From assembly GCF_018320785.1 (NCBI RefSeq), contig NC_054878.1, positions 47,332,061 through 47,396,060 on the forward strand: a stretch of 64,000 nucleotides of DNA. Reading direction: 5' to 3'. The translations under genes were made by a program, and so were the position numbers. Below the pieces are notes generated by a model that was not told where the DNA came from, made no database searches, and was given only the letters and a program-made list of their open reading frames with translations. This document shows positions 2,969 through 62,410 of this stretch, in pieces; position 1 is the stretch's first letter, and the number at the start of each line of letters is the position of its first letter. This stretch comes from Cheilinus undulatus. Lineage: Eukaryota > Chordata > Actinopteri > Labriformes > Labridae.

Positions 2969-4103
2969 TGGGGGCCGGATGGGGAGATGTGAGCGGCCTG
3001 ATGTGGCCCCCGGGCCACCAGTTGATTATCCCTGGATTATTGTATTTAGATTATAGGTCAGTGATCATCAACTGGCGGCCCGGGGGCCACATCAGGCCCC
3101 CCAAAGCTTCCTGTCTGGCCCCTGAAAGATCATTACATTCAGAAAAGGAGGAAAAGAAGATTTTAAGAGTATCCTTTTGCTTTAAATGTCTGCAGCTGTT
3201 AAATCCATCCCAATTAACATTAAAATAGTTTTACAATGACTAACCATTTGATCTGTTTTTACAGAAATTTACTGTCAAAATTAGTCAACATTTAAAAAAT
3301 GGTTAAAGTTGGCAGAAGTGTTGCAAAAATTGGCAGAAAAAAGATGTGAAAAAAGGTTAAAATGTGTCAAAAATGGTAAAGGAGAAAAAAAGGGGCAAAA
3401 GGTATCAAAAATTCTTTACAAATGACAAAAAATAGTGCAAGAAAGTAAAGAAAAGAGGTTAAAAAGTGGCAAAAATTGGAGAAAGTGGCAAAAATTGATA
3501 ATAGTGTGGCATAAAGGGGATAAAACATGCAGAAAAAGTGGTTTAAAAGGGATTAAAATCTTTCAAAAATTGGGTTAATGAGGCAAAAGGGGCAAAAAGT
3601 ATCAACAATGGGTTAAAAGTGGGAAAAATGGTTTTAAAGTTGCAAAAATGGTTGAACAAATGTAATAAAATGGGCAAAAAGTGGCAAAAATAGAAGAAAA
3701 GAGGCACAAAGGGGATAAAACATGCAGGAAACGTGATTTAAAAGGGCTTAAAATCATGCAGAAATTGGGTTAAAGAGGCAAAAATTATCAAAAACGGGTT
3801 AAAAGTGTCAAAATGGGTTAATATTGGTGCTAAATGACAGTTAGGGAGGGCCCATTCTCTGGGATTTTCAGGGGTCCGGCCAATCCTGTAGTCAGGCCTG
3901 CTGCATTCTAGATAATAGGGATAGATCTCACTGGTAATGACTAAAAATGTCCTGTAGTTTAAAGGAAAATACAAATACTACTGCAGTAATATTTCAATCA
4001 GACCAAAATGTTCATTTAATTTTTGTGTATTTGAAAATCCGGCCCCCAGAGTTTCTGTTGGGACTAAATCTGGCCCTTGTGCAGATGGACTTGATGAGCC
4101 CTG
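2969..4103 (+). mobile_element. Family A hAT-like non-autonomous element, copy 1
   Basis: Main body 3,059-4,103, with ends CAGTGATCATCAACTGGCGG and the reverse complement of CAGGGCTCATCAAGTCCATC. GGCCCGGGGGCC-type sequence sits just inside the left end and 'ggcccccagagtttctgttg' just inside the right. The interior is degenerate GGCAAAAATGG filler. Near 3,840-3,880 lies the phrase CCCATTCTCTGGGATTTTCA, the likely progenitor of the 23-bp minisatellites. An extra inverted copy of the left end (2,969-3,034) lies immediately upstream. No clean target-site duplication was found. The hAT assignment rests on end style only. Confidence 0.8.
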
Positions 4104-5647: not shown

Positions 5648-6666
5648 ATTTAAATATCTGCAGCTCTTAAATCCATCCCAGTTAACATTAAAATACTTTC
5701 AAGTTTAGTTTATTTAACAGGACAGTGTGTGGTGTCATTAATTATTTAAAAATAAATAAATAAATAAAAAAAGATGGCTGCACCAGATTTAGCAGAATGC
5801 TAATTTCCATCTGTAGTCCCATAAAAATAGTTTTACAATGACTAACCATTTTATCTGTTTTTACAGAAATTTACTGTCATAATTAGTTGATATTTAGAAA
5901 ATGGTTAAGGTTGGCGGAAGTGTTGCAAAAATTGGCAGAAAAATAGACGTGAAAAGAGGTTAAAATGTGTCAAAAATGGCAAAGGAGGAAAAAAGGGGCA
6001 AAAGGTATCAAAAATTCTTTACAAATGACAAAAAATAGCGCCAGAAAGTAAAGAAAAGGGGTTAAAAGTGGCAAAAATTGATAATATATTGGCATAAAGG
6101 GGAAAACATGCAGGAAAAAGTGGTATAAAGGGGGTAAAAATCTTTCAAAAATTGGGTTAATGAGGCAGAAAGGGGCAAAAAGTATCAACAATGGGTTAAA
6201 AGTGGGAAAATTGGTTAAAAAGTTGCAAAAATAGAAGAAGAGTGGCAAAATGGATAAAAGAGTGGAACAAAGGGGATAAAACATGCAGGAAATGTGGTTT
6301 AAAAGGGCTTAAAATCATGCAAAAAAATTGGGTTAAAGAGGCAAGAATTATCAAAAAGGGGTTAAAAGTGTCAGAATGGGTTAATATTGGTGCTAAATGA
6401 CAATTAGGGAGGGCCCATTCTCTGTGATTTTCAGGGGTCCGGCCAATCCTGTTGTCAGGCCTGCTGCATTCTAGATAATAGGGATAGATCTCACTGGTAA
6501 TGACTAAAAATGTCCTGTAGTTTAAAGGAAAATACAAATACTACTGCAGTAATATTTCAGTCAGACCAAAATGTTGATTTAATTTTTGTGTATTTGAAAA
6601 TGCGGCCCCCAGAGTTTCTGTTGGGACTAAATCTGGCCCTTGTGCAGATGGACTTGATGACCCCTG
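5648..6666 (+). mobile_element. Family A hAT-like element, copy 2 (5' truncated)
   Basis: Begins inside the element at 'tttaaatatctgcagctctt' and runs to the normal right end 'gatggacttgatgacccctg'. Relative to copy 1 it carries about 130 extra bases (roughly 5,695-5,825, containing 'tttatttaacaggacagtg'), apparently a later insertion of another repeat. Confidence 0.8.
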
Positions 6667-6692
6667 GTGTAGGACAGCAGGTTTATTTCTGA

Positions 6693-7152: not shown

Positions 7153-8317
7153 ATTTTCCAGTGTTTTGTAAGTTATTACCATTAACACATTAAAAAGATT
7201 GATTTTATTTTTTTTAGTTTGGATGCTGATGAGGCGGGTCTCCAAAAGAATGACTGACAGATAAGAAAAAGAGGAAGAAGTCCATCTCCTTCACAAGCGT
7301 CCACTCCTGCAGACTTCAGGACCTTAAGAGGCTCCAACACAGCCGTCTCCAGACAGTCCAAAAAGAGAGTGGAGACAGGAAACTTTCTTCATCTGCGTGT
7401 AGGAAGGTAAAACCCAAAACATCCCAGTAGAGACAGAGGAATGGAGGACTTCCTGATCTCCCAGAGACAATCACAGTCCTCTCCAGATCCACAACAGTCC
7501 AGCTCACAGCTCAGTTTACTGCATGCATGCCAGTGGGCCCAGAGTCTGGATCTGATAGTCACTACTATTATGTACAGGGATGATCATCAGTGGACTAAAT
7601 AGATAGGTCATACACACCGGTCAAATACATGAGTCTAGTTTAACTCATTTAAAGAATCAACTGGGACAAATCACTTCAGGTTTAACTAAAGAATATAACG
7701 TGATGTTATATGTTGAATTTCTCTCAATATCTATAATGTGGTTTGAAATAAAATGAACAAAATCTCAAGCTCTGTTACCTCATTTTTTCTCCACTGGGGT
7801 TTAGAGTAGTTGTATATGTAAGATTATCTAGCATTGACTGCATCAGTAACAGTGATCGACTGGAGGGCCCCCAGTCAAACTTTGCTTAGGGCCCCAAGTA
7901 AGCTTGGGCTGGCCCTGTACCGAAAAAGGCCTATATAGAAATAAAAACCTCATAATGCATTAAAGAAATGCCCCGAGCCTCTGTAACTGTGAATGAGAAC
8001 TATGATTGAGTATTTTGGAGCAGTTTTGAGGGGAACTGTTCCTTTACGTTAAAGCTGCTGCAGGTCTGACCCAATCTGACCTTAACCTTTAACTTTAACA
8101 CCTTCAAACAGTCGCCCTGTAACAGTACGGTCACTTTCCTTCTGTTGCAGATAGTTCTGGCAGTAATGAGGAGAATGTTTAGGCTCATTTCAACATTAGA
8201 ACCCAGTAATAGTTTGACACACTTCAGAGCTCCAGAATAAGGTAACTGTAAGGTAGGATGCTAGCACCAATGCTACTGATCCAACATGAATGCACTGATA
8301 TCATTTATACATCATAA
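7153..8317. other. Intergenic, no gene seen
   Basis: No exon or recognised repeat beyond short phrases such as 'agggccccaagtaagcttgg'. Short minus-strand open frames at 7.3-7.5 kb and 8.0-8.2 kb show no domain. Confidence 0.3.
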
Positions 8318-9869
8318 CTAGGGAGGCTCCATTCTCTGGGTTTATCAGGGTCCATTCTCTGGGTTTATCAGGGTCCATTCTCTGGGTTTATCAGGGTCCA
8401 TTCTCTGGTTTTATCAGGGTCCATTCTCTGGGTTTATCAGGGTCCATTCTCTGGGTTTATCAGGGTCCATTCTCTGGTTTTATCAGGGTCCATTCTCTGG
8501 TTTTATCAGGGTCCATTCTCTGGTTTTATCAGGGTCCATTCTCTGGGTTTATCAGGCTCCATTCTCTGGGTTTATCAGGCTCCATTCTCTGGGTTTATCA
8601 GGGTCCATTCTCTGGTTTATCAGGGTCCATTCTCTGGTTTATCAGGGTCCATTCTCTGGTTTTATCAGGGTCCATTCTCTGGTTTTATCAGGGTCCATTC
8701 TCTGGTTTTATCAGGGTCCATTTTCTGGTTTTATCAGGGTCCATTCTCTGGTTTTATCAGGGTCCATTCTCTGGTTTTATCAGGGTCCATTCTCTGGTTT
8801 TATCAGGGTCCATTCTCTGGGTTTATGAGGCTCCATTCTCTGGGTTTATCAGGGTCCATTTTCTGGTTTTATCAGGGTCAATTCTCTGGTTTTATCAGGG
8901 TCCATTCTCTGGTTTTATCAGGGTCCATTCTCTGGGTTTATCGGGGTCCATTCTCTGGGTTTATCAGGCTCCATTCTCTGGGTTTATCAGGGTCCATTCT
9001 CTGGGTTTATCAGGCTCCATTCTCTGGGTTTATCAGGCTCCATTCTCTGGGTTTATCAGGGTCCATTCTCTGGGTTTATCAGGGTCAATTCTCTGGTTTT
9101 ATCAGGGTCCATTCTCTGGTTTTATCAGGGTCCATTCTCTGGGTTTATCGGGGTCCATTCTCTGGGTTTATCAGGCTCCATTCTCTGGGTTTATCAGGGT
9201 CCATTCTCTGGGTTTATCAGGGTCCATTCTCTGGTTTTATCAGGGTCCATTCTCTGGTTTTATCAGGGTCCATTCTCTGGTTTTATCAGGGTCCAATCTC
9301 TGGGTTTATCAGGGTCCATTCTCTGGTTTTATCAGGGTCCATTCTCTGGGTTTATCAGGGTCCATTCTCTGGGTTTATCGGGGTCCATTCTCTGGGTTTA
9401 TCAGGGTCCATTTTCTGGTTTTATCAGGGTCAATTCTCTGGTTTTATCAGGGTCCATTCTCTGGGTTTATCGGGGTCCATTCTCTGGGTTTATCAGGGTC
9501 CATTCTCTGGTTTTATCAGGGTCCATTCTCTGGGTTTATCGGGGTCCATTCTCTGGGTTTATCAGGGTCCATTCTCTGGGTTAATCAGGGTCCATTCTCT
9601 GGGTTTATCGGGGTCCATTCTCTGGGTTTATCAGGGTCCATTTTCTGGTTTTATCAGGGTCAATTCTCTGGTTTTATCAGGGTCCATTCTCTGGGTTTAT
9701 CAGGGTCCATTCTCTGGGTTTATCAGGGTCCATTCTCTGGGTTTATCAGGGTCCATTCTCTGGGTTTATCAGGGTCCATTCTCTGGGTTTATCAGGGTCC
9801 ATTCTCTGGGTTAATCAGGGTCCATTCTCTGGGTTTATCGGCGTCCATTCTCTGGGTTAATCAGGGTCC
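8318..9869 (+). repeat. 23-bp minisatellite array 1 (about 67 units)
   Basis: Head-to-tail 23-bp units built on CATTCTCTGGGTTTATCAGG. Common variants are GGTTTT for GGGTTT, CGGGG for CAGGG, and AGGCTCC for AGGGTCC; a few units are 22 bp. The left border (AACTAGGGAGGCTCCATTCT) resembles the sequence flanking the same motif in family A elements. Because 23 is not a multiple of three and no frame of the unit contains a stop, a spurious 329-codon open frame runs through it. Confidence 0.98.
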
Positions 9870-11240
9870 CAGCTGACTGTGTTTAGACTTACTTTCCCAT
9901 TTTTTTTTTTACATTTGTTTGATTTCAGCCTAAACCTCACCAAATAACTATGTTTTTATTTTACATTTGACTAATTTTATGCATATATTTTTTAAACAAT
10001 GGTAAAACATAGTTTGAAATCATCTAATAATATTCTTAGTTTTCAAAGTCATATGGCAGCCCCATTGGCTCCTTCCAAACACTGAGGAGCACTGACCTAT
10101 AGAGCTTGAATTTTGTCAGTTTTAACAGGTGGTGGTGTTTGCAGAAGTGGGTATATTTATTCTTATTTACTCTCATTGGGTATGCTCTATGGGGACTAAA
10201 AATAAGTGGGTATACTCTGTGTACCAGTGCCATTTCTCATAGTAAGCAGCTTTATCATGGACAGAGAGTCTTTGAGCCCTGAGGACTTTCAGCATTAGTT
10301 TATCATGGTGGTGTTGTTTGGATTTTTCTTGACCAAAAACAAAAATACCCCACCAAAAACCAAAGACTAGCACTGCTCTGCCGCTCATTTGTGCTCACTC
10401 ACACTGCAGGATGGTGGAAGATGAAGTCCAGGATCCCAGGAGTCCCCATCCATGGTTATGTCATCTAGTATCTGGAGTTCAGGGAGCCAGTGAGGTCTCA
10501 GACCAGGACCCTTAAAGCCCATGGTCTTGCTCATCCTCTTGGGGCATCTCAACACTCTGCACAAGGGCTCATACCTGAGTCTACTTGGCCTAGAGGACTG
10601 GTGATCCTGTCCCTACCAGGGGATTCCAGACGGGTCCCAGGTAATGGGGAGGTTTTCCTTCTCTGTTTATGGACACTGTTAAAGGAGTTTCTAACATACT
10701 CCATTAAAATCTGATGGATTTAAAGAAGCGCTCTTCTCTCTAATAGAAAAAGGCTCCTCAGCTTTTCCAACATTACGCAGCAGCTGGTCGTCATCACGAG
10801 TCGTCTCACCTCTGACCACGTCTGAGGGTTTCTGACTTAGAGGGATTTTTCTCTCAGATCCTCAGAGGAAGCAGGCTGAGGCATCGTGCTGCTGAATGCA
10901 CGATTAGAGGGGAGATCTGGGAGGGATGGTGGGATCTGGTCTATATTGGTACTTATTTCCGACTACTGTAACAAAGGATTGCCTCACCTTAGTGCACTGA
11001 AGTTGTATTGTAGTGTTTTGGCCTGCAGGTGGCCCCACCACTCTGTCCATCGTGTACCTTTAGAAGGAAACTGCAGTTTCTGTTGGATATGAGTTCATCC
11101 TGCGGTCACATTTCATCTCTTATCAGTGTGAGAGCTGGAATGTATTTAAAAATATGCATAATCAGATAACTGCTATGACTCAGTATTACACCTGTTTCAG
11201 TACTTATCAATTACCCTGCACAGACAAAACGTTTAATTAG
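9870..11240. other. Intergenic, possible retroelement scraps
   Basis: No intact gene. At 10,490-10,660 phrases such as 'cttggggcatctcaacactc' on the minus strand are loosely reminiscent of the 3' region of fish non-LTR retrotransposons, but no reverse transcriptase motif is readable. Remainder unassigned. Confidence 0.25.
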
Positions 11241-12755
11241 TGGTGTCCAAACTATGGCCCGCAGTCCAATTTCAATTGTACCAAGGAGGATTAGGGCAAA
11301 AAAAAAAAAAAGACGCATTTTTTTTCTTTTTTACTTGTGGGAAATAAATTAAAATTTTTAGATCAAAGTAAGAATTCTAAGATTAAAGACAGAAATCTGA
11401 GATTAAAGACAGAAATCTGAGATTAAAGACAGAACTCTGAGATTAAAGACAGAACTCTGAGATTAAAGACAGAACTCTGAGATTAAAGACAGAAATCTGA
11501 GATTAAAGACAGAACTCTGAGATTAAAGACAGAACTCTGAGATTAAAGACAGAAATCTGAGATTAAAGACAGAACTCTGAGATTAAAGACAGAACTCTGA
11601 GATTAAAGACAGAACTCTGAGATTAAAGACAGAACTCTGAGATTAAAGACAGAACTCTGAGATTAAAGACAGAACTCTGAGATTAAAGACAGAAATCTGA
11701 GATTAAAGTCAGATCTCTGAGATTAAAGACAGAAATCTGAGATTAAAGACAGAACTCTGAGATTTAAGACAGAAATCTGAGATTGACAGAAATCTGAGAT
11801 TAAAGACAGAACTCTGAGATTAAAGACAGAAATTTGAGATTAAAGACAGAAATCTGAGATTAAAGACAGAACTCTGAGATTAAAGACAGAAATCTGAGAT
11901 TGACAGAAATCTGAGATTAAAGACAGAAATCTGAGATTAAAGACAGAAATCTGAGATTGACAGAAATCTGAGATTAAAGACAGAACTCTGAGATTAAAGA
12001 CAGAAATCTGAGATTGACAGAAATCTGAGATTGACAGAACTCTGAGATTAAAGACAGAACTCTGAGATTAAAGACAGAAATCTGAGATTGACAGAAATCT
12101 GAGATTGACAGAACTCTGAGATTAAAGACAGAAATCTGAGATTGACAGAAATCTGAGATTAAAGACAGAACTCTGAGATTAAAGACAGAAATCTGAGATT
12201 AAAGACAGAACTCTGAGATTAAAGACAGAATTGTGAGATTAAAGACAGAACTCTGAGATTAAAGACAGAATTGTGAGATTTAAGACAGAACTCTGAGATT
12301 AAAGACAGAAATCTGAGATTAAAGACAGAACTCTGAGATTAATGACAGAATTGTGAGATTAAAGACAGAACTCTGAGATTAAAGACAGAAATCTGAGATT
12401 AAAGACAGAACTCTGAGATTAAAGACAGAAATCTGAGATTAAAGACCCAAATCTGAGATTAAAGACAGAATTGTGAGATTAAAGACAGAACTCTGAGATT
12501 AAAGACAGAAATCTGAGATTGACAGAAATCTGAGATTAAAGACAGAAATCTGAGATTAAGGACAGAACTCTGAGATTAAAGACAGAAATCTGAGATTAAA
12601 GACAGAACTCTGAGATTAAAGACAGAACTCTGAGATTAAAGACAGAACTCTGAGATTAATGACAGAAATCTGAGATTAAAGACCCAAATCTGAGATTAAA
12701 GACAGAATTGTGAGATTAAAGACAGAACTCTGAGATTAAAGACAGAATTGTGAGT
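11241..12755 (+). repeat. 20-bp tandem array (about 69 units) beside a hAT-like end
   Basis: From 11,381 the unit GATTAAAGACAGAACTCTGA repeats in near-perfect register. Variants are AAATCTGA, AATTGTGA, GACCCAAATC, and a 17-bp form lacking three A (GATTGACAG). The GACCCAAATC variant occurs at about 12,444 and 12,681, 237 bp apart (eleven 20-bp units plus one 17-bp unit), indicating segmental duplication within the array. The preceding GTGGTGTCCAAACTATGGCC at 11,241 looks like the end of a hAT-type element, so the array may be expanded transposon filler. Confidence 0.95.
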
Positions 12756-13677
12756 TTTAAGAGAACGTGAGCTCATGGTGTGATGATGACAGCGCTGTCA
12801 GCTGGAAAGACTCCTGAACTGCTCAGAAACCCTTGAGCTAGGATTGCATTAAGGCTCTGAGTGTTTCTTACATTTGCACAAAAGTTCTGACAATTTCCCA
12901 TATTTTTGCAGTGTCAAGTCTGTATGCAAAAAAGCTTAATTCTCACCCAATCTTTATCAGGACTTTTTTCTCTTAAAAATTTTCAGTGAGTCTGTGGGTG
13001 AATGCAACAGATAATATTCAGTGAGTGAGCTGGTGGGTTAACAGCATTTATATCCAAAGACCAGTGGCGTGCATTAAAGCAGCTTCATATTCTTTTCTGC
13101 TGCTGGTCAGCCTCTGTTCTGTTACACCAAGAATACGTCCAATCACACACAGCGTTGATTTAAAGGCAGTGACGGTCTATGTAGCGTCAGCCACCCTTCA
13201 AATGTTCTCACCTCTGACCAAATCAACCAGATCCCTCTGCGACAATACCAGACCCCAGGCTTAAAAACATTAGCAGCTGGCTCTGTCCACTTCTTACACC
13301 CAGTCTATGAGAAAACAACCTTACCATCACCCTCACAGTAAGCTCAGCGCCATACTGAGTCTTACTGACATGGCACTGGGTAGATTTATCAGAATCTGCA
13401 GGGACTCTGTGCATAAAGCAGCTGGTTTTCTGTAAATGAAGGAGACAGCTGGATAGGTTTTTCTCTCTGTGATCCTCTGAAGATTTTAAGATATGAAGGT
13501 TAAATCCGAGAAGATGCTCAGTGACTTGAGATATCCTCCACCATGATCCACCTGTGTCAGCCTCACCTCTGATAGGAGCGTCAATTAAGACGGGTTTCTC
13601 TCTCAATCAAAGCAGTGATAAAAATGCAAGATAACCCCACCAATCTGACTACGCCTGCAGGCACGTTTACCCTAGAG
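12756..13677. other. Intergenic, no gene seen
   Basis: Mixed composition, not obviously repetitive. The 127-codon minus-strand open frame at 13.2-13.6 kb has no recognisable domain or splice context. Confidence 0.25.
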
Positions 13678-14489
13678 CAGTGATACTCAACGTGTGGCTC
13701 TTTAATGTCTTCATTTTGAATATTATTCCCCCAGAAAACTTTAAAAAAGGAAACTTTTTGCCCCTTTTTACCATTTTTTTTTTGCCATTTTTCATCCATT
13801 TAAACTACCTTTTGTCATTAAACGCCACATTTTTTCCTACTTTTCCCCATTTTTGTCACTTTTTTCCAATTTTTGCCCTTTTCACCATTTTTTGCCACTT
13901 TATGCCCATTTAAGCTACCTTTCGCCATTAAATACTACTATTTTCTTATTTTTTGCCTATTTTGCCACCTCTATTAGTCACTTTTATCCCATTTATGCTC
14001 TTGTCACTGTATTTTGCCCATTTAAGCATCCTTTTGCCATTAAATGCCACTTGTTTCCTATTTTTTTTGCCCATTTTTGTCAATTTTCACTCTTTTTTTT
14101 TGCCTTGTTTTGGCCACTTTTAATCCATTTCTGCTGCTCTAAGGCCATTTTTACCACCTCTTGTAGCAACTTTTCGACCATTTTAGCCACTTTTATCCTG
14201 ATTCTTTGCAATTTTTTTGCCCATTTAAGCTGCCTTTTGCCATTATATGCCCATTTACCCCATTTTCCCCACCTTTTTACAGCCTTTGTGCCCATTTTAG
14301 TCACTTTTTACTCCTTTTTTGCAGCTTTTTGATCACCTGTAGTTACATTTTTTCTGACTTTCCACCCATTTTTGCCATTGTTCACCCACTTTTCTCCATT
14401 GTATGCCTGTTTGCCCCTTTTTCCCTCATTTTTTGCTGGCATTTTTTCAACAAGCGGCCTCTTTGGTTAAGCAGGGTTAAGTAATGCTG
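13678..14489 (+). mobile_element. Family B hAT-like element, 4 internal blocks
   Basis: Left end CAGTGATACTCAACGTGTGG; right end eroded (GGTTAAGTAATGCTG against the expected GTTGAGTAACACTG). The interior is TTTTTGCCACTTTT filler. The block core GCCATTAAATACCACTT recurs about four times (near 13,815, 13,924, 14,037 and 14,236). Target-site duplications are not readable. Hydrophobic Phe/His/Pro-rich open frames on the plus strand are filler translations. Confidence 0.8.
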
Positions 14490-14799
14490 CATTAACCAGA
14501 GCATACTGACAACAACAGAACATGGTCTTCCTAAAAGCACCTCTACAGATAATACTGCACATCAGTTCCAGGCACTCAAAGGGCTTAAACACAAGAGGTA
14601 CAAATATGTACACCTACCTATATATAAATGGATATACATATGATGCATGCACAAAAATGGTAATACTGCTGATTGTACTAGAGAGCAACCTTTACTATGA
14701 CATACATGGGAACTACGTAGCCGTGCATGGTTCTGATGCCACCACTGATGTCCTGGGATCTGAGTTCTTGCTGTCTCATGTTGTCGTTGGGTTACTATC

Positions 14800-15420
14800 T
14801 TGATCAGGTTTTCGTTCAGGTTCTTTAAGTGCTCAGCTCTGTGAGTAGCAATGCCATCTGCAGGATTCTGGAGCTCTGCGGGATCCCGCCTTCACTCATC
14901 CAGCAGATGTCTGTCCTAAATTCTGGTCCAGAGAGTGCTGAAGTGTGGTCTCCTGGACCGAAATATCCAGGTATTACAGGATGCCTTGGATGCTGCCGTT
15001 GAATCTGTGTCTGTGGATGGTGAGAGCATGGAGATTAGGCTTGGTATCGTAATCCATCTATCCGCTGACTGTGAGGCTGAGATCAGCTGCAGACTTGGAC
15101 TCCAGATGGGGCGATGGGTTCACTGAGCAAGACAGTGTGGTGTTCCTGGTGTCTGAGCATGCGGACTAAAGTCAGAGTCTTTGGGTCCTTGGCTCTCCCC
15201 GTCCTAGTGTACTCTTGTGAGGCCTGATCATTGACTGATGGCCAGAGGTGCCTGGACTCCTGGCACCTGGCATGATTTCCTAGACCTGATCCAGCCAGGG
15301 CAACCGCATGCATCGTTTGGGATGAGCTGGGCAGATACCTGGAGAGATGGGGCATGGGCCTGGAGGATGGCTAGAGCGGTACAAGACCAAGGTGCTCCCG
15401 TACCTGAGCTGTTCTGATGA
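14800..15420 (+). pseudogene. Dead non-LTR retrotransposon 3' fragment
   Basis: At 15,163-15,230 one frame reads RTKVRVFGSLALPVLVYSCE, then a stop where Trp is expected, then SLTDGQRCLDSW. This matches the end of reverse transcriptase in fish LINE-type elements (pattern K-R-V-F-x-x-L-V-L-P-V-L-L-Y-G-C-E-x-W). Several stops and frameshifts show it is inactive. Upstream fragments (DGESMEIRLG... near 15,020) fit the same decayed ORF. The LINE clade is not assigned. Confidence 0.6.
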
Positions 15421-17092
15421 TGTTGGGTGTCATTTGTTCGCGGTTCTTTTGTTTGGGTTCTGTTGGTTTTTCTCATGTGTCAAAGCTATTTGTTTTTAAA
15501 AGTGCTACAAATAAAGATTTAGTAATAATTATTAGGGACTGCTTTTATTTTCCTTTGTCTTTACTTCTTTGTGCTAAGTTTTTGCATCATCCCACATGTA
15601 GAAAAGTTGATTTTACATTAAAAACAGTGAATCAGAGCTCCGGGCTGCCATTGCAGTGCTCGAAGTCCCTGTTTTTACCTGGATCTCTCTGGAGAAAAGA
15701 CACACTGAAATAATCTCTGAGATAATCCTTGATAACTGTCGACTCAAAGAAAGCTAAACACCTTTATTTTTCCCCTGCAATGATTGAAAACTCTAATAAA
15801 AGGCTAAAATCGTACTCCGACTCTTTCGCCAGACTAATATTTGTACACTTTGTGTATCTGGAAAGCTTTAATAATCTCCGCTAAAACATTTGAGGGAGCG
15901 TTTGGTGATGGGTGGCCCGCCCTTTTGGCTTTCAAGCAATTAATTCAGCTTTCTGACATCAAACCGTGGGCTCAGCTCGACAGCTTGGAGCTCAAATAAA
16001 AAAATAGAAAAGGCGAGTTCTCCTGGGAACAGAGCAAAGATGGCAGGCTCCTTTCTGCTCTGTTTGCTCAGTGGCTCTGAGAGCAATCTTCCCCCCGACG
16101 TGAAGACAATGAGCGGGCGGAGAGAAAGGCCCGGCGGCGGGAATGAACAGTTTGGAGTATTTACTCAGTGGAGGAGCAACCACAAAGGCAGAGGCGAGGC
16201 GTTCCCATGAATCAAGGCGCCGTCTCAGGCCTCTTTTTGTTTTGCGGCTCTGCTTCTGAGCTATTAGACGACTCTACAGATAACTGGTTTCATGTCATTT
16301 AGATCCTTTTCTCTGTAAAACTGTACCATCAGGTGACCCGCTTCGGTTTGTTTTATTTGGCCGCTTTAACACACGTGGAGCTGTGGATCAGCCCTCCATA
16401 TTCCCCCTGATATTCAGCCTCATTGAGTGTTTCCTCACTTCAGATGTGGGAGAATGAAGTCCACATTCAGGCCAATAACGCTGACGTTTAGCTGTAGTTG
16501 ACCATTGCCCCGCCAAATTTTTATCCCCACGTTAAAAAAAAAAAAAAGCACAAACTCTCTGGGTGGCCGCGCTGGAGGTCTGAAAGGCATCCAGAGTGAC
16601 GCTTAAGCTCTTTTCACCTTAAGAAAGCGTCATTGTACATGTGAGTGAAAGGGAAACTGCTGTCTATAAGATTTTATTAAGTATCTGCTGCTCAAACACC
16701 CATGTTCTCACCACGCAGACGTCCAGGAGGAACAAAGATGAAGATTTTCAACCATGCTCTGAAGGAGATTTAAAGGAAAGTCAAGTGATTTTAATGGGCC
16801 AACCCAACTGTATAAAGCTTTTATTTTTAAAGCGTGTTGTCTGAGCTAAATTTACAAAAATTAAACCAGCCTTGTAATATTCAATATCTTCACCAATTTT
16901 GTTTTGTAATTTGATACTCTAATGTGGTCGTGTCTCTTGTGTGCTTAGTCAAAAGTTGGTGACCGATATTTTTCATCACTTTTTCATCTAACGAATTGAA
17001 AACTGGTCCATTCTGGTAAAACTCATGTCTACATATTTGGACACCAGTAAGGAAATTTTCTCAATTCTCTGAACTTTACTTGACTTGAATGA
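15421..17092. other. Unique intergenic block, candidate conserved non-coding DNA
   Basis: Lacks the repeats that fill the surroundings, and 15,880-16,280 is clearly richer in GC. No exon or long open frame. Contains TGGGTGGCC (15,909-15,917), one mismatch from the Gli consensus TGGGTGGTC, and a homeodomain-like CAATTAATT just after it. It lies about 8 kb 3' of the forkhead gene. Conservation cannot be tested here. Confidence 0.3.
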
Positions 17093-18333
17093 GCCCCTGA
17101 TAAACCCAGAATGGCCCCTGATAAACCCAGAGAATGGCCCCTGATAAACCCAGAGAATGGCCCCTGATAAACCCAGAGAATGGCCCCTGATAAACCCAGA
17201 GAATAGCCCCTGATAAACCCAGAGAATGACCCCTGATAAACCCAGAGAATGGCCCCTGATAAACCCGGAGAATGGACCCTGATAAACCCGGAGAATGGCC
17301 CCTGATAAACCCAGAGAATGGACCCTGATAAACCCAGAGAATGGCCCCTGATAAACCCAGAGAATGACCCCTGATAAATCCAGAGAATGGCCCCTGATAA
17401 ACCCGGAGAATGGACCCTGATAAACCCGGAGAATGGCCCCTGATAAACCCAGAGAATGGACCCTGATAAACCCAGAGAATGGACCCTGATTAACCCAGAG
17501 AATGGACCCTGATAAACCCAGAGAATGGACCCTGATTAACCCAGAGAATAGACCCTGATAAACCCGGAGAATGGACCCTGATTAACCCAGAGAATAGACC
17601 CTGATAAACCCGGAGAATGGCCCTGATAAACCCAGAGAATGGCCCTGATAACCCCGGAGAATGGACCCTGATAAACCCGGAGAATGGCCCTGATAAACCC
17701 AGAGAATGGCCCTGATAACCCCGGAGAATGGACCCTGATAAACCCGGAGAATGGCCCTGATAAACCCAGAGAATGGCCCTGATAAACCCGGAGAATGGAC
17801 CCTGATTAACCCAGAGAATAGACCCTGATAAACCCAGAGAATGGCCCCTGATAAACCCGGAGAATGGCCCCTGATAAACCCGGAGAATGGACCCTGATAA
17901 ACCCGGAGAATGGACCCTGATAAACCCGGAGAATGGCCCTGATAAACCCAGAGAATGGCCCCTGATAAACCCGGAGAATGGACCCTGATAAACCCGAAGA
18001 ATGGCCCCTGATTAACCCAGAGAATGGACCCTGATAAACCCGGAGAATGGCCCTGATAAACCCAGAGAATGGCCCTGATAACCCCGGAGAATGGACCCTG
18101 ATAAACCCGGAGAATGGCCCTGATAAACCCAGAGAATGGCCCTGATAAACCCGGAGAATGGACCCTGATAAACCCGAAGAATGGCCCTGATAAACCCAGA
18201 GAATGGCCCTGATAAACCCGGAGAATGGACCCTGATAAACCCGAAGAATGGCCCTGATAAACCCAGAGAATGGACCCTGATAAACCCAGAGAATGGACCC
18301 TGATAAACCCAGAGAATGGACCCTGTTAATCCG
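17093..18333 (-). repeat. 23-bp minisatellite array 2 (about 54 units), inverted relative to array 1
   Basis: Head-to-tail units read CCTGATAAACCCAGAGAATG on the plus strand, the reverse complement of the array-1 unit. Variants include CCCGGAGAAT, CCCGAAGAAT, GATTAACCC and GATAACCCC, plus 22-bp units (GGCCCTGA). A sub-pattern alternating GGACCC, GGCCCC and GGCCC units dominates the second half. Confidence 0.98.
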
Positions 18334-18359: not shown

Positions 18360-18710
18360 TCCTTACCTTATACGGCCATTTTTGCCACTTTTTGCAAACC
18401 ACTTTCACCATTTTCAAGCCATTTTTGCATTTTTTTAACCCTTGTTGCTTGTATTAACCCCCTCATTACTACTTTTACACCTTTTAACCAATTTTTGCTA
18501 CATTATCTCAACTTTTTTTGCAACTTTTAACATGTTTTTAAAAATTTCAGCCCATTTTCAGCCTCTCTTTTACCCCTTTATGCTACTTTTAAATATTTCT
18601 TTGCCACTTTTTAGCAGCTTGTATCCATTTTCCACCCATTTTTGCCACGTGTAACCTGCTTCCACCACTTTTTTGCTACTTTTAACCCAGTTGTGCCATT
18701 TTTGCACAAA
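18360..18710. repeat. T-rich GCCATTTTTGCCACTTTT filler
   Basis: Degenerate filler of the family A/B kind directly abutting minisatellite array 2. Likely the remnant interior of the element in which the array expanded. Open frames here are low-complexity. Confidence 0.6.
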
Positions 18711-19542: not shown

Positions 19543-20535
19543 CAGGGGTGTCAAACTCAAGGCCGAATCTGACTGGTAGTACAGTTATACCCGGCCCTCA
19601 AGATCATATCATATTCTTATTATAACTGGCCCAAAAATATGAGGTCTGCAGATTTCCTCCAGTATAAAAATGTAAACTTAGCCATGATAATATCAAATAT
19701 CCTTAAGTCATAAAAATGTGAAAAAATAAAGAGTAAAAATAATTAGATTAAAAAGAAATGTGGGTAAAGAAATTCATTTCATATTTTCAATTTTGCATTG
19801 CACAATTATGACTTCAATCTATTCTTTGGACTTTTATCTAATATTTTGAACTTTTCAATTTTTTATTTGACTTTTTATCTCATACTTTGACCTTTTCAAT
19901 TTTATTATTTTAATGTTTTATCTCATATCTTGACCTTTTAAATTTCTTATTTGACTTTTTATCTCGTATTTTGACCTTTTCAATTTATTTTTTGGACTTT
20001 TCATCTCACATTTTGACCTTTTCAATTTTTTATTTGACTTTGTTTCTTATATTTTGACCTTTTCAATTTCTTATTTTGACTTTTTATCTCATATCTTGAC
20101 TTTGTCAATCTATTATTTGGACTTTTATCTCATATTTTGACCTTTTCAAATTATTAATTCAACCTTTATGTCATATTTTGACATTTTATGTGCACCATTT
20201 TAACTTGTAAGTCATATTTCTGCCGTAGAAAACATGGTTGTGACTTTCCTTTTTATATATTTGCCTTTTATAACTATTATTTTAACATCTAATTTTTTTT
20301 TACCTTTCGAAGCAATAAGTTAGACTTTTTATTTCAGATTTTATGCCTTTTAACTAACCATTTTGATTTTTTAAATCTCAGAAATTATTTATCATCATTG
20401 CTAATCTTTTCCCCCAAAATTCATTACTGTTGAAAATGAGGTTAACAGTTTGGTTAAAAGTGGACCCTGTTAGACCCTCAGGTTAGACCTTCATTCAGAA
20501 TCCGGCCCCTGCTGTCATTGAGTTTGACACCCCTG
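19543..20535. mobile_element. Complete hAT-like element, CAGGGGTGTCAAACTCA type (993 bp)
   Basis: Ends CAGGGGTGTCAAACTCAAGG and TGAGTTTGACACCCCTG are inverted repeats. Flanking 8-mers CTCTAAGA (19,535-19,542) and CTCTAAGC (20,536-20,543) are a near-perfect 8-bp target-site duplication, as expected for hAT. No transposase. The interior is a degenerate tandem repeat (TTTTATCTCATATTTTGACC ... TTTTCAATTT) with a period somewhat under 50 bp. Confidence 0.88.
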
Positions 20536-21780: not shown

Positions 21781-22059
21781 CAGGGGTTTTCAAAGTGTGT
21801 GAGAGTGAGCCTCCCCTAAGAGAAAATTATTCATTGGGTGGACCCCCACCCACATAAACATTCAGATTTTAAAAAAAAAGTAACCATATTTTCAAACATT
21901 TATGTCTAATTTTAAATATTTTTACATTTTTATATCTTTGATATTTTGGTCTGCAAATGTCCTTAAACATCCATCTTTACCAGGTAATCAGTTATTTGGT
22001 TTCAGTAATGAATTTATTGCCAATACTACCTGATTATTCTGCTCTGATAATCCTTAAAG

Positions 22060-22634
22060 CAGCGTTACTCAACCAGAGAGCCAAACTGTTAAAAAAATAC
22101 CTCTGCAAGAGCCACAATCTAAGAGGTGAAGCAAGAACAGCTTAAAGTAGCAATAACAGTAAGTGAAAGATGGCAAAAATGGTCAAAAAGCAGCAAAAAA
22201 AATGGGTGAAAATGGGCAACAATGGGGATAAAAAGTGAAAAAAGATGGGTGAAAAGTGAAAAAAAAAAAGAGTAACAGGTGGCAAAAACAAGGCAAAAAA
22301 AAGTTTAAAAAAGCAGTTAAGAGTGGCAAAAATGGGCAAAAAGTAGGAAAAAGTGGTATTTAATGACAATAGGATGTTTAAATGGGTGAAAAATGGCCAA
22401 AAAAAAAAGTTTAAAAGGGCAAAAATTGGAAAAAAAAAAAAGTGGCACATAGAAGTGGCAAAGAGTAGGAAAAAAGTGGTATTTAATGACAAAAGGATGC
22501 TTAAATGGATGAAAAGCGCCAACAGAAGGTATAAAAGGGGCAAAAAAGTTTCCCTTTTTAAGGTTTTCTGGGGGAATAATATTTAAAATGAAGACATCAA
22601 AGAGCCACTAATAATCACACATTGAGTATCACTG
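22060..22634 (-). mobile_element. Family B hAT-like element, 2 internal blocks (575 bp)
   Basis: Ends CAGCGTTACTCAACCAGAGA and CATTGAGTATCACTG. A perfect 8-bp target-site duplication CCTTAAAG flanks it (22,052-22,059 and 22,635-22,642). The block core GTGGTATTTAATGACAA appears twice (near 22,357 and 22,480). Shortest family B member here. Confidence 0.92.
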
Positions 22635-22700
22635 CCTTAAAGTAACTGTAAATCTATTCATTTGCTCCATGCACAGCAGAAGTTCGTAAAGCAAATCACT

Positions 22701-33136: not shown

Positions 33137-33206
33137 TACTTAACCCATAAGAGGCCACACCCATTTCTCCTCATAGCAGAATTATGGTGGGGCAGACTCA
33201 GTAGAC

Positions 33207-34250
33207 CAGGGCTCATCAAGTCCATCTGCACAAGGGCCAGATTTAGTCTCAACAGAAACTCTGGGGGCGGATTTTCAGATACACGAAATTAAATGAACAT
33301 TTTGGTCTGATTGAAATATTACTGCAGTAGTATTTGTATCTCCCTTTAAACTACAGGACATTTTTAGTCATTACCAGTGAGATCTATCTCTATTATCTAG
33401 AATACAGCAGGCCTGACAACAGGATTGGCCAGACCCATGAAAAACACAGAGAATGGGCCCTCCCTAATTGTCATTTAGCACCAATATTAACCCATTTTGA
33501 CACCTTTAACCCCTTTTTGATACTTTTTGCCTCTTTAACCTAATGTTTGCATGATTTTAACCCCTTTTAAACCATGTTTCCTGCATGTTTTATTCCCTTT
33601 GTTCCACTCTTTTATCCATTTTTGCCACTTTTCTTCTATTTTTGCCACTTTTTAACCCCTGTTATTACATTCTTTCAACAATTTTTGCAACTTTAAAACC
33701 ATTTTCCCACTTTTAACCCATTGTTGATACTTTTTGCCTCTTTTTGCCTCATTAACCCAATTTTTGAAAGATTTAAACTCCTTTTACACCACTTTTTTTG
33801 CATGTTTTATCCCCTTTATGCCACTCTATTATCAATTTTGCCACTTTTTAACCCCTTTTCTTTACTTTCTTGCACTATTTTTTGTCATTTGTAACCATTT
33901 TTTGATACCCTTTGCCCCGTTTTTCCTCCTTTACCATTTTTGACAAATTTTAACCTCTTTTTACAACTTTTTCTGCCAATTTTTGCAACTCTTCTGCCAA
34001 CCCTAACCATTTTTGAAATATTGACTAATTTTGACAGTAAATTTCTTTTAAAACAGATCAAATGGTTGGTCATTCTAAAACTATTTTAATGTTAACTGGG
34101 ATGGATTTAACAGCTGCAGATATTTAAGGCAAAAGGACACTCTTAAAATCTTCTTTTCCTCCTTTTCTGAATTGAATGATCTTCCGGGGGCCGGACAGGA
34201 AGCTTTGGGGGGCCTGATGTGGCCCCCGGGCCACCAGTTGATGATCAGTG
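33207..34250 (-). mobile_element. Family A hAT-like element, copy 3 (1,044 bp, reverse)
   Basis: Left (inverted) end CAGGGCTCATCAAGTCCATC; right end GTTGATGATCAGTG preceded by GGCCCCCGGGCC-type sequence. Full length and collinear with copy 1 in reverse. The segment matching the minisatellite unit is near 33,447. Confidence 0.85.
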
Positions 34251-34726
34251 GCCAAAAGAGTCTGAAGAGGATGGAGCAGAGTTACATAAAGAGAAGGAGG
34301 GAAAGAAAGTGAACAAGGCCTAACCAGCTCTAATAGGAGGATGGAGCAGTCTTTAGGGAGTTTAAAACAAAGTTTCATGGCTACATATTTAACTGACTCT
34401 TTTAAATAAAATTAAGATCTGACGTTGATTTTGTTAGAAAAACAAAAAGGTCATCTTAGACACCAGCCCGTTTTAGCCTGGCCTGTGGGAAACTTTTTTT
34501 TAGTTAAAACAGGCCACATTTTACTCTCTTACATGAGATTTAAACAGAAATTTAGAGTAAAAACCTATGTGAGGAAATTTAAATCCCACATTTTTATAAA
34601 TCTAAAAATGTGTGGGAGACAGCAAAGCAGAAGGAGAGGTAGAGAAAAACAAGAGAGAGAAAAGAGACGTGAAAAAGGAAAGACAGAGAGGCTGATATTA
34701 ACAGGTACCATGAGATAACAGAGCTC
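34251..34726. other. Intergenic, purine-rich
   Basis: No exon recognised. Contains a strongly purine-rich run near 34,620-34,690. Confidence 0.25.
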
Positions 34727-38724: not shown

Positions 38725-39352
38725 CCAGTTTTACTCAACCCTGCTCAACCAAAGAGCCAAATTGAAAAATACAGTTGCAAGAGTTACAATCTAAGTCAGG
38801 GGGGCTACAAGTCCATCTGCACAAGGGCCAGATTTAGTCTCAACAGAAACTCTGGGGGCGGATTTTCAAATACACAAAATTAAATGAACATTTTGGTCTG
38901 ATTGAAATATTATTGAAGTAGAATTTGTATTTTCCTTTAAACTACAGGACATTTTTAGTCATTACCAGTGAGATCTATCTCCATTATCTAAAATGCAGCA
39001 GGCCTGACTACAGGATTGGCCGGACCCCTGAAAATCACAGAGAATGGGCCCTCCCTAACTGTCATTTAGCACCAATATTAACCCATTTTGACACTTTTAA
39101 CCCCTTTTTGATACTTTCTGCCTCTTCTAATCATGACATTAAATTTCTGTAAAAACAGATCAAATGGTTAGTCATTCTAAAACTATTTTAATGTTAACTG
39201 GGATGGATTTAACAGCTGCAGATATTTAAAGCCAAAGGATACTCTTAAAATCTTCTTTTCCTCCTTTTCTGAATTGAATGATCTTTCGGGGGCCGGACAG
39301 GAAGCTTTGGGAGGCCTGATGTGGCCCCCGGGCCGCCAGTTGATGATCAGTG
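38725..39352 (-). mobile_element. Family A copy 4 (internally deleted) next to a family B end
   Basis: 38,725-38,796 matches the left end of family B (CAGTTTTACTCAACCCTGCT through 'gagttacaatctaag'). From 38,797 a short family A copy runs in reverse to 39,352 (ends CAGGGGGGCTACAAGTCCAT and GTTGATGATCAGTG). About 490 bases of filler are missing relative to full copies. The rest of the B element is not found on the other side, so A insertion plus deletion, or chance juxtaposition, are both possible. Confidence 0.75.
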
Positions 39353-41545: not shown

Positions 41546-41627
41546 ACGCTCAGCTAGTGAAACGGTTCGATATCTGCTGAATTCCTGATAAAATGGTTTT
41601 GTCATGATTATACAGGTTCATCTAAAT

Positions 41628-42378: not shown

Positions 42379-42539
42379 ATCTAAAAATTGTATATAGAGT
42401 AAATTCATTTTTCCTCCTGATCTCCATCAGAAAGTTAAGCTTAAATAAATTCTAGAATAATCTCAGACATAGTGACATTTCAAGACAGTATAAATAAGAA
42501 CAAAGATTATTAACAGTTGAATAATATTCACACACTTTT

Positions 42540-61500: not shown

Positions 61501-62410
61501 AAGAGGCCAAAAGTATCAACAAGGGGTTAAAAGTGTCAAAATGGGTTAATATTGGTGCTAAATGACAATTAGGGAGGGCCCATTCTCTGTGATTTTCAGG
61601 GGTCCGGCCAATCCTGTAGTCAGGCCTGCTGCATTCTAGATAATAGGGATAGATCTCACTGGTAATGACTAAAAATGTCCTGTAGTTTAAAGGAAAATAC
61701 AAATACTACTGCAGTAACATTTCAATCAGACCAAAATGTTCATTTAATTTTTGTGTGTTTGAAAATCCGGCCCCCAGAGTTTCTGTTGAGACTAGATCTG
61801 GCCCTGGTGCAGATGGACTTGATGAGCCCTGCTCTAGTATCTTGATGCTTTTCTTACTGTGAATAAATTTACCTTAAAATTGCATCTCTTAGAAATAAGC
61901 ATCTGCCTTTCGTTACGTGGCTTCGGATATTTCACTAATAAGAAGAAAATAAGAATAAGAAAATTGACATTTGGCTAAGGTCATCTGCAGTCCTCGTTCA
62001 GCTTTTAAATATTAGAAAAAATAGTTCACTTACAGTCACAGTGAATGACATTTAAAGATAATCTTATTTTTATTACACATTTACTCAACACTTCTGTCAA
62101 AGACGAGTCGCTACATGTCTGAGAGAGCGGTTTTAACATGCTAACCAGCGTTTATTAAGTAGAAACCTGTAACTGAGCAGTAGTCATGGTTTTTATCTAA
62201 TATTCTCACCTGAGTTCCTCCCAGCCGTAACACCTCTTCTAAACTGAACTCTTCTTCGTCTTTCTTGGCTTTGTCTTCACCTCCACCCGTGTCTGGATCT
62301 TCATCCTCCTCTCCTCCGCTGTTTTCAGCCTCCATGTCGTTCTCTGCATACTGAAATGTCACTTTCTTAGCGCTTTTGGTCTTTTTACGGTGCTTGTTTT
62401 TCGCTGCCAT
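45409..62410 (-). CDS. cebpz: Cebpz, CBF/Noc1 (Mak21) ribosome-biogenesis factor (1,098 aa, 17 coding exons)
   Basis: Exons (high-low): 62410-62210, 60231-58730, 58184-57953, 57104-56930, 56324-56236, 54555-54502, 54379-54277, 54094-54035, 53119-53053, 52940-52834, 52229-52169, 49748-49540, 47983-47948, 46721-46626, 46542-46478, 46397-46316, 45566-45409. Phases agree at every junction. The N-terminus is Lys-rich, then SLEEVLRLGGT at the exon 1/2 border. Exon 2 (about 68-568) holds the helical-repeat body. The CBF domain runs from about 530 (QVMDSQQSISDRYYTALYR) through LLYKSLKADIVLRRVKAF (about 587-605), SWVHHQNLE, YSGDPLQDFTL and RFLDRFVFRNP. An acidic tail has a 10-Asp run (943-952), and the C-terminus is basic (LKWEAQRDDWIHDRDAK...). 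The family acts in nucleolar 60S assembly (yeast Noc1/Mak21); human CEBPZ, of similar length, was also described as a CCAAT-binding activator. Oddity: the exon 4 donor must be the weak GAAG|GTCGGT to keep frame, although GTGAGA lies 4 bases on. The introns hold many transposons. Confidence 0.97.
46161..46166 (+). terminator. Candidate distal cebpzos poly(A) signal
   Basis: First AATAAA on the plus strand after the cebpzos stop, about 810 bases downstream. Using it would make the cebpzos 3' UTR run antisense through the last cebpz exon. Confidence 0.25.
46753..47059. mobile_element. Short TTAA-flanked element (Kolobok/piggyBac-like) in cebpz intron
   Basis: Ends AGGTCATATATTATAC and AAATATGTGACCT, flanked by TTAA on both sides (46,749-46,752 and 47,060-47,063). 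The interior includes 'cctgagaggggcggagtcag' and 'cagctggttctgagcagggc'. A second copy is at 54.6-56.1 kb. No transposase; superfamily inferred from the TTAA duplication. Confidence 0.7.
48236..49294 (+). mobile_element. Tc1/IS630-like transposon with AGGTGCATCT ends, dead transposase
   Basis: Ends CAGGTGCATCTAAAATATCT and TATTGGGATGCACCAG are inverted repeats, with 'atcatgaaaaagtt' and 'actttagcatgatattct' just inside. Within, one frame reads FKKSGELHKDWTETGVSG and another WSDLNPIEDLWK, the hallmark of the Tc1-like DDE catalytic region, with multiple frameshifts and stops. In the cebpz intron between exons 13 and 12. A reversed fragment of the same family lies at 58.3-58.5 kb. Confidence 0.75.
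49544..49573 (-). repeat. In-frame (GAT)10 run encoding ten Asp in cebpz
   Basis: Ten uninterrupted GAT codons on the minus strand within exon 12 (residues 943-952). A pure triplet run is prone to length change, so allele variation in the acidic tail is likely. Confidence 0.95.
51151..51232. repeat. (AAT)n and (CT)n microsatellites
   Basis: About eight AAT units at 51,151-51,175 and about eleven CT units at 51,210-51,232, the latter at the tail of the SINE. Confidence 0.95.
51233..51369 (-). mobile_element. tRNA-derived SINE
   Basis: Read on the minus strand: A-box-like GGTTTAGTGGCA, then B-box GGGTTCAAGTCC about 30 bases later (consensus GGTTCGANTCC, one mismatch), then the tail 'ttgctgcatgtctctccctg' and AAAAAAGGCACAAAATGCCC. 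This architecture is that of a common fish tRNA-SINE. Confidence 0.65.
51370..52006 (-). mobile_element. Family B copy, right end truncated
   Basis: Begins CAGTGTTACTCAACCTTGGT. GGCAAAAATGGG-type filler follows, with one clear block core near 51,627 (GTGTCATTTAATTGAAAAGG). It stops at 'gcggctctagag', lacking the final GAGTATCACTG, where a CAGGGGTGTTAAACTCAAGG end begins. Confidence 0.75.
52007..52116 (+). mobile_element. hAT-like end, CAGGGGTGTTAAACTC type (fragment)
   Basis: CAGGGGTGTTAAACTCAAGG followed by GGCCCGGGGGCC-like sequence, the same end type as the element at 19.5 kb. Only about 110 bases remain before the outer element's right end. Confidence 0.65.
53238..53950 (-). mobile_element. 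Family B hAT-like element, 3 internal blocks (713 bp)
   Basis: Ends CAGTTTTACTCAACCCAGCT and GCATTGAGTATCACTG. A perfect 8-bp target-site duplication TGCTAGCA flanks it (53,230-53,237 and 53,951-53,958). Block cores near 53,530, 53,643 and 53,768. In the cebpz intron between exons 9 and 8. Confidence 0.94.
54625..56143. mobile_element. TTAA-type element copy split by a nested insertion
   Basis: 54,634-54,683 and 55,921-56,143 together match the element at 46.75-47.06 kb ('agttccgccctcctctc', then 'cctgagaggggcggagtcag' through 'aaatatgtcccctttat'). The left end is missing. The two halves are separated by the insertion described next. Confidence 0.75.
54684..55912. mobile_element. 1,229-bp element with CATAGATAT ends and 8-bp duplication AAGAGAGC
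   Basis: Inserted in the preceding element. Perfect target-site duplication AAGAGAGC (54,676-54,683 and 55,913-55,920). Imperfect inverted ends CATAGATATCTATAGAACAC and, in reverse, CATAGATATATATAGAAGAG. Internal phrases 'cggcggccatcttggcgg' near the left, and 'atagaatagaatagacttta', itself a dispersed-repeat phrase, near 55,263. No transposase readable. The 8-bp duplication fits hAT or P-like superfamilies. Confidence 0.85.
57238..57731. mobile_element. TAGGGCTGGGCAATTAA-type hAT-like element (494 bp)
   Basis: Ends TAGGGCTGGGCAATTAATTT and AAATTGCTCAGCCCTA. Flanking CTTTCAAT and CTTTAAAT match at 7 of 8. No coding capacity. In the cebpz intron between exons 4 and 3. Confidence 0.88.
58289..58545 (-). 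mobile_element. Fragment of the AGGTGCATCT Tc1-like transposon (reverse)
   Basis: On the minus strand it matches the middle of the element at 48.2-49.3 kb (shared phrases 'agagtccac', 'ctaccaggagattttagagc' versus 'ctaccgggagattttagagc', 'ccagaactaccagaaactgg', 'gaggatctctggaagatgag'). No ends present. In the cebpz intron between exons 3 and 2. Confidence 0.75.
60801..61831 (+). mobile_element. Family A hAT-like element, copy 5 (1,031 bp)
   Basis: Starts CAGATCATCAACTGGTGGCC, ends 'gatggacttgatgagccctg'. CTAGTA-containing flanks (ACCTAGTA / CTCTAGTA) may be a worn target-site duplication. Collinear with copies 1 and 3. Lies in cebpz intron 1. Confidence 0.87.

What the first reader, a model, noticed from the sequence alone, without database searches (positions are those of the whole stretch)
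8318..18333. Two inverted 23-bp minisatellites apparently born from one segment of a dispersed transposon
The array unit CATTCTCTGGGTTTATCAGG closely matches CATTCTCTGGGATTTTCAGG, present once in each family A element (for example 3,852-3,871). Array 1's left flank (TAGGGAGG) also matches the element's flank, and array 2 abuts family-type GCCATTTTTGCC filler. This looks like at least two independent tandem amplifications, in opposite orientation, seeded by the same segment of the same element. It is a concrete route from transposon to satellite.
Basis: partly seen in the sequence, partly recalled or inferred. Interest (0 to 1): 0.7.

Follow-up and report, generated by a model that had tools for sequence, protein, structure and literature searches.

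The report
Transposon-seeded minisatellites near chromosome ends
In this animal genome a roughly 23-base stretch near the end of an old, widely scattered transposon has become long tandem arrays at many places, mostly towards chromosome ends, and at least one of the two arrays in the window is a clear case.

Summary
In detail: two 23-bp arrays in opposite orientation (8324-9869 +; 17087-18329 -), whose unit resembles a segment carried once by each of five family A copies. "Seeded by A" does not hold. The exact 20-mer occurs 16,876 times in the 1.17-Gb genome. Flanks of other arrays point to an older, dispersed, hAT-like family, "D", with the seed about 45 bp from its 3' end. Array 1 is preceded by about 138 bp of D (score 184; best of 200 shuffles 26). 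Array 2 has only filler. Of 18 arrays not chosen by their left edge, 12 have D on the left. Of 80 D 3' junctions taken without regard to position, 16 were arrays and 64 single seeds, at median distances of 2.2 and 16.9 Mb from contig ends (p=1e-8). A second, distal-only sample (4 arrays of 20) shows that position alone is not sufficient. Origin from D is firm. Whether arrays arose separately or were passed between D copies is open: tree, periods and flanks favour separate births, but the units inside 14 of 16 arrays carry one seed variant that only 23 of 64 single seeds have. New variant of a known kind.

The parts
8324..9869 (+). array 1: about 67 copies of a 23-bp unit, AGGGTCCATTCTCTGGGTTTATC
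   Evidence: TRF; unit catalogue (two 22-bp units); 63 unit steps of 23 bp
8186..8323 (+). left flank of array 1: 3' subterminal part of a D element
   Evidence: local alignment score 184 against D flank, maximum of 200 shuffles 26; the same sequence precedes other arrays and single seeds
17087..18329 (-). array 2: about 55 copies of the same unit, 22-23 bp, with CTCCGGG variants
   Evidence: TRF
18376..18710 (-). GGCAAAAATGGG-type filler upstream of array 2 in unit orientation; no D flank detectable (score 15, shuffle maximum 24)
3841..3881 (+). single seed segment in family A copy 3056-4103
6404..6444 (+). single seed segment in family A copy 5820-6672
33429..33469 (-). single seed segment in family A copy 33202-34253
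39018..39058 (-). single seed segment in family A copy 38800-39353
61569..61609 (+). single seed segment in family A copy 60799-61847

Best explanation
The arrays belong to one dispersed minisatellite family that arose by tandem amplification, inside copies of D, of a 23/24-bp segment near the 3' end of this old hAT-like non-autonomous transposon. Shown: D is a repeated element with terminal inverted repeats and 8-bp target-site duplications; its seed is the array unit; many arrays, array 1 among them, are flanked by D at this position; a few keep both D ends. Shown in one sample unselected for position: arrays lie near contig ends and single seeds do not. Inferred: the first duplication uses the short direct repeat that brackets the seed (offset 24 or 23) by slippage or repair; it happened in a number of D copies; units were then multiplied, homogenised and to some extent exchanged between arrays, most often in the distal megabases. 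Array 2 is assigned by its unit and filler only. A and a longer D-containing family are relatives that carry the same segment.
For: Flanks: left D flank above the maximum of 200 shuffles in 14 of 21 arrays with a readable left edge, one of them narrowly (L060, 28 against 24); 12 of the 18 not chosen by their left edge. Right D end in 6 of 20 by the test, and L063 by pattern. Element: left end CAAGGCTGCCCATAAGG, right end GTGGGCAGGCCTG; duplication exact in L038 and, by eye, L052; 7 of 8 in L047 and L051. L056 has both ends around a 14-unit array, duplication 6 of 8 by eye. Abundance: 4017 first-look candidates, of which the 40 scored are 90-95% identical to a 122-nt 3' piece. Position: 16 arrays (median 2.16 Mb from a contig end) against 64 singles (16.92 Mb), p=1.07e-8; within 3 Mb 11 and 0, beyond 5 Mb 1 and 58; D junctions as a whole are not clearly enriched at ends (11 against 9.0 expected within 3 Mb; 21 against 15.0 within 5 Mb, P=0.061). 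Separate births: array and single D copies mix on a D tree (11 changes, shuffled mean 10.7, 0% of 200 bootstrap trees with one origin); units more alike within than between arrays (1.12 against 1.65 differences per 17 bases) and 20 right flanks with no shared match; periods 23 and 24; 16 arrays with different right junctions on 11 chromosome arms.
Against: Array 2 has no D flank; three of 21 arrays (L011, L012, L055) have neither D flank nor clear filler. The right D end is not detected in 13 of 20 arrays, which simple expansion does not explain. Against separate births: the units before the last one are mostly of variant A in 14 of 16 arrays, whereas 23 of 64 single seeds are A (p=2.3e-4), and the three arrays whose last unit is T have A inside (the query pattern carried A, with two mismatches allowed). 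Genome-wide exact units are 16,876 A, 656 T, 913 G. The one-clade test does not reject a single origin (p-AU 0.087), and starred branches force only 3 changes. Against position as the cause: of 20 left junctions chosen within 5 Mb of an end, 4 are arrays, all of one local group; the G-variant listing gives p=0.042 only. Direct repeat: median 6.5 bp in single D seeds, 4 bp in A, but A also looks younger.
Confidence: 0.62

Rival explanations
1. One or a few arrays formed in a D copy and then spread: by conversion between D copies, with single seeds as landing sites, by transposition of an array-bearing element, or by duplication of distal blocks. The D flanks of most arrays would then be those of the recipient copy.
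For: Variant A fills 14 of 16 arrays but 23 of 64 single seeds, and three arrays with a T last unit have A inside. Six D left junctions with a private GAACTG variant lie together at C13 2.17-3.32 Mb; of the six, 4 are arrays and 2 single, so local duplication happens. p-AU 0.087 does not exclude one origin. Loss of the D right end would fit one-sided copying.
Against: T and G arrays exist too (clusters). Two periods, private common unit variants in 11 of 20 arrays and no shared right flanks among 20; array and single copies interleave on the D tree, though transfer by conversion would also give that.
Confidence: 0.3
2. Family A itself was the parent.
For: A seeds are the best matches to the unit inside the window, and TAGGGAGG matches.
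Against: Array 1 is preceded by D, not by A. A seeds differ from the unit at 2 of 20 or more. No exact A-type tandem pair of period 23; five hits with one mismatch lie within 2.3 kb on C2. The 5 copies in the window and the 20 fetched are single, though the 20 were found with a pattern that requires a single seed.
Confidence: 0.04
3. The reverse: D captured a unit from an older minisatellite.
For: Array and element share the segment, which by itself has no direction.
Against: Many D copies carry one seed, while array flanks at scattered sites are D; a capture would leave arrays in unrelated DNA.
Confidence: 0.03

Closest known systems
Ogre-derived satellites of Lathyrus sativus (Vondrak et al. 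2019, PMC7004042; abstract and one results section read)
   Same: Repeats carried by a dispersed transposon expand into long arrays only in certain chromosome regions.
   Different: There an LTR retrotransposon with short tandem arrays already inside, and expansion in the primary constrictions; here a DNA transposon whose seed is single in most copies seen, and expansion mostly within about 5 Mb of contig ends.
Tetris / TIR-220 of Drosophila virilis (Dias et al. 2014, PMC4079207; abstract read)
   Same: A non-autonomous DNA transposon provides the units of an emerging satellite; the genomic environment is said to have favoured amplification.
   Different: About 220-bp units already tandem in the TIRs of a foldback element; here one 23-24 bp unit.
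Minisatellites from SINE B1, Alu and LTRs (Bois 1998, Kelly 1994, Jurka and Gentles 2006; seen only as entries in the reference list and table of review PMC9659126)
   Same: Minisatellites that expanded from a segment of an interspersed repeat.
   Different: Other elements, other segments; those papers were not read.

Membership tests
minisatellite | tandem head-to-tail units of roughly 10-60 bp (range recalled) | tested here: met
   23-bp units, 55-67 copies in the window
classical satellite DNA | very long arrays in heterochromatin (definition recalled) | tested here: inconclusive
   The arrays read range from 4 to at least 259 units, 0.1 to about 6 kb; chromatin not testable
hAT superfamily (D element) | 8-bp target-site duplication | tested here: met
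   Of five single-seed copies with a left end: exact in L038 and L052, 7 of 8 in L047 and L051, none in L049 (L051 and L052 by eye)
hAT superfamily (D element) | short imperfect terminal inverted repeats beginning CA | tested here: met
   CAAGGCTGCCCATA and the reverse complement of the right end, CAGGCCTGCCCACA, 11 of 14 by eye
hAT superfamily (D element) | related transposase in an autonomous partner | not tested
   no autonomous copy was looked for, so hAT-like only
transposon-derived tandem repeat | arrays lie inside element copies at one internal position | tested here: met
   14 of 21 left edges; 6 or 7 of 20 right ends
family A as parent of the arrays | array flanks match A beyond the unit | tested here: not met
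   array 1 flank is D; array 2 flank only filler

The most novel reading that the evidence does not exclude
The scattered D copies are the scaffold of a minisatellite: the same short seed with built-in direct repeats sits at thousands of sites in one genome, and near chromosome ends these seeds are turned into arrays, either again and again in place or by copying an existing array into the seed as a landing site. The crowding of minisatellites at chromosome ends would then come from local amplification and exchange acting on a uniformly scattered transposon, not from biased insertion.
Probability: 0.4. Interest if true: 0.7.

Novelty: new variant of a known kind. Interest (0 to 1): 0.5.

Why it matters
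That transposons seed minisatellites is established. Here many single-copy seeds and many arrays of the same seed lie in one assembly whose larger contigs are 27-60 Mb long, so the effect of position, age and seed sequence on array formation can be measured. It would make the old question why minisatellites crowd chromosome ends (recalled from human work) directly testable by counting, and separate local birth from transfer between loci.

Tried and rejected
Parent is family A: rejected for array 1 by the flank. Chance similarity of unit and A seed: rejected by shuffles. Large duplicated distal blocks as the general explanation: no shared right flanks among 20, though local duplication is likely on C13. 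Position alone decides: rejected by the distal left-junction sample. Array length falling with distance from the end: rho -0.50, p=0.017 over 22 arrays chosen in different ways, but -0.31, p=0.35 in the 11. L047's duplication: the same GTTACAG recurs beside other copies (L014, L043, L167), so it is probably one old insertion of D into another transposon that was later copied. A viral-contig scan with the 20-mer found nothing. One search timed out. Gene names in the window are recalled, not searched.

Full report
Observation. Tandem Repeats Finder reports array 1 at 8324-9869 and array 2 at 17087-18329, both period 23, in opposite orientation. In unit orientation the commonest unit of array 1 is CATTCTCTGGGTTTATCAGGGTC; array 2 has CTCCGGG variants and 14 steps of 22 bp. 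Five copies of family A lie in the window, each with one related segment. A dimer of the unit searched against the rest of the window has these five segments as its best places (35-40 against 24 for the next; 60 shuffled units reach at most 28).

Genome context. The window is C14:47,332,061-47,396,060 of a 1.17-Gb assembly in 46 contigs; C14 is 49.3 Mb long, so the window lies about 2 Mb from its end. The exact 20-mer occurs 16,876 times (8365 + 8511), with 0 for the reversed control.

The parent is D, not A. Among six arrays fetched from C1, three (L009, L010, L014) have left flanks shared with array 1 that are not A. A pattern for the left edge of the seed gave 111 hits, 100 listed. Of 20 loci fetched from that list because of a GGG.AGG-type left edge, 17 had a single seed and 3 had arrays. 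Their alignment shows an element end...CTACTGATCCAACACACATGCACTGATATCATCAATAAATCACAACTGGGGAGGGGCCCATTCTCTGGGTTT(A/T/G)TCAGGGGCCCAGCCAATTCTGTGGGCAGGCCTG, then differing DNA. Left ends CAAGGCTGCCCATAAGG were found upstream of five of the single-seed copies; the 8-bp target-site duplication is exact in L038 and L052, 7 of 8 in L051 and L047, and absent in L049 (partly by eye). A 122-nt piece of D gave 4017 first-look candidates, of which the 40 scored are 90-95% identical and scattered. I call D hAT-like from its ends and duplications; no transposase was sought.

Flank test. Twenty-one arrays have a readable left edge: two in the window, six on C1, three picked by the left-edge pattern, and ten of the twelve loci (L064 is open on both sides; L065 held no array). 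The left D flank scores above the best of 200 shuffles in 14 of 21 (L060 only narrowly), and in 12 of the 18 not picked by the left edge; array 1 scores 184 against 26. The right D end is significant in 6 of 20; pattern matching adds L063. Array 2, L045 and L066 have only filler on the left; L013 has filler on the left and the D end on the right; L011, L012 and L055 have nothing clear. The right edge of array 1 gives p=0.18. Array 2 is therefore assigned by its unit and by filler only.

A and other relatives. By eye, A carries about the last 70 bp of D inside an element with other ends. The A seed pattern (up to 3 mismatches, single seed required) has 149 hits; of 98 of the 100 listed (two on C17 left out), 58 lie within 3 Mb and 82 within 5 Mb of a contig end. 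A-type tandem pairs of period 23 are absent exactly; five hits with one mismatch lie within 2.3 kb on C2; period 24 was not searched. A longer family that contains D, apparently through an old insertion with target GTTACAG, is seen near the ends with single or degenerate seeds.

Position. The pattern of the last unit plus the D right junction has 501 hits. I fetched the first 80 of the 100 listed, without regard to array state or position: 16 are arrays, 64 have one unit. Arrays lie a median 2.16 Mb from a contig end, singles 16.92 Mb (Mann-Whitney p=1.07e-8); within 3 Mb 11 arrays and 0 singles, within 5 Mb 15 and 6, beyond 5 Mb 1 and 58; with last-unit variant A only, p=6e-5. All D junctions together are not clearly in excess at the ends (11 against 9.0 expected within 3 Mb; 21 against 15.0 within 5 Mb, P=0.061), while singles are short there (0 against 7.2 and 6 against 12.0). 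The 16 arrays lie on 11 chromosome arms, five of them on the right arm of C10, with different right junctions. In the first 100 listed places of the T and G seed variants, clusters lie nearer the ends than singletons, p=2.3e-6 and p=0.042.

Against a simple position rule. Single D copies occur within 3 Mb of ends (C18, C20, C24). Of 20 left junctions chosen within 5 Mb of an end from 100 listed of 983, 4 are arrays, all in one group with a private variant at C13 2.17-3.32 Mb; one more of that group is single, as is a sixth member met in the 80-set (L156); the other 15 are unexpanded, nearly all with the 3' sequence of the longer family by eye. Arrays also exist inside chromosomes: L061 at 22 Mb, L062 at 14 Mb, L063 at 11 Mb from an end. 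So the ends favour arrays of the classical D family, but position is neither sufficient nor strictly necessary.

How many births. For: 12 array and 32 single D flanks (141 columns) give a tree on which the array label changes 11 times (shuffled mean 10.7; 0% of 200 bootstrap trees with one origin); units are more alike within than between 20 arrays (1.12 against 1.65 differences per 17 bases; shuffled arrays at most 0.04 apart), 11 of these 20 have private variants seen three times or more, and 20 right flanks share no match at E 1e-5; periods 23 and 24 both occur, though the loci were picked by a unit that favours 24. Against: p-AU is 0.087 and starred branches force only 3 changes; in the 16 arrays of the unselected sample the units before the last are mostly variant A in 14, while single seeds are T 26, A 23, G 14, C 1 (p=2.3e-4), and three arrays ending in T have A inside; exact units genome-wide are 16,876 A, 656 T, 913 G. 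Either A seeds expand more readily, or array units were passed between D copies. I keep several births plus exchange as most likely, at lower odds than before this recount.

Mechanism. In 64 single D seeds the unit is bracketed by a direct repeat, longest exact run median 6.5 bp and best at offset 24 in 43 and 23 in 19; in 25 A seeds 4 bp at offset 23 in 24. Slippage or repair between these copies would give units of 24 or 23 bp, as observed. Lengthening by unequal exchange or conversion near chromosome ends is inference. The right D end is undetected in 13 of 20 arrays, which I cannot explain; one-sided copying would fit.

Known background. A review lists many transposon-derived tandem repeats, including MITE-derived satellites and SINE- and LTR-derived minisatellites (PMC9659126, passages and one section read). 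The nearest parallel for position-dependent expansion is Lathyrus, where dispersed Ogre elements with short arrays expand in primary constrictions (PMC7004042, abstract and one section). Tetris is a similar DNA-transposon case (PMC4079207, abstract). The listings of six literature searches showed no paper that I recognise as this case; that is not proof of absence. The animal is unnamed; a ray-finned fish is my guess.

Noticed in passing
11360-12762: A third minisatellite, 20-bp unit AGATTAAAGACAGAACTCTG, about 71 copies; an exact 26-mer of it occurs 56 times in the genome, in arrays here and at C6:51.03 Mb (3.8 Mb from the end), plus two single hits. A sequence resembling a hAT end (recalled) lies just upstream at about 11241.
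   Followed up: partly
19813-20187: A 41/83-bp tandem array inside a sequence beginning CAGGGGTGTCAAACTCAAGGCC at about 19546, again resembling a hAT end (recalled).
   Followed up: no
13677-14440, 22054-22654, 41606-42384, 43431-44441, 53233-53906: A second repeat family with the same kind of GGCAAAAATGGG filler but another end (CAGTGATACTCAACGTGTGGC at 13680); the filler is shared by several families.
   Followed up: partly
3056-4103, 60799-61847, 33202-34253: Family A is concentrated near contig ends (82 of 98 listed seeds within 5 Mb).
   Followed up: partly
L177-L181 and L156 (C13:2.17-3.32 Mb): Six D copies with the same private flank variant: three with six or more units in the stretch read, one with three units, two single. 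A possible local series of array states.
   Followed up: partly
24493-25653 (-) and 58726-60261 (-): Long open frames that look like a FOXA-type forkhead protein and a CEBPZ-like protein (recalled, not searched).
   Followed up: no
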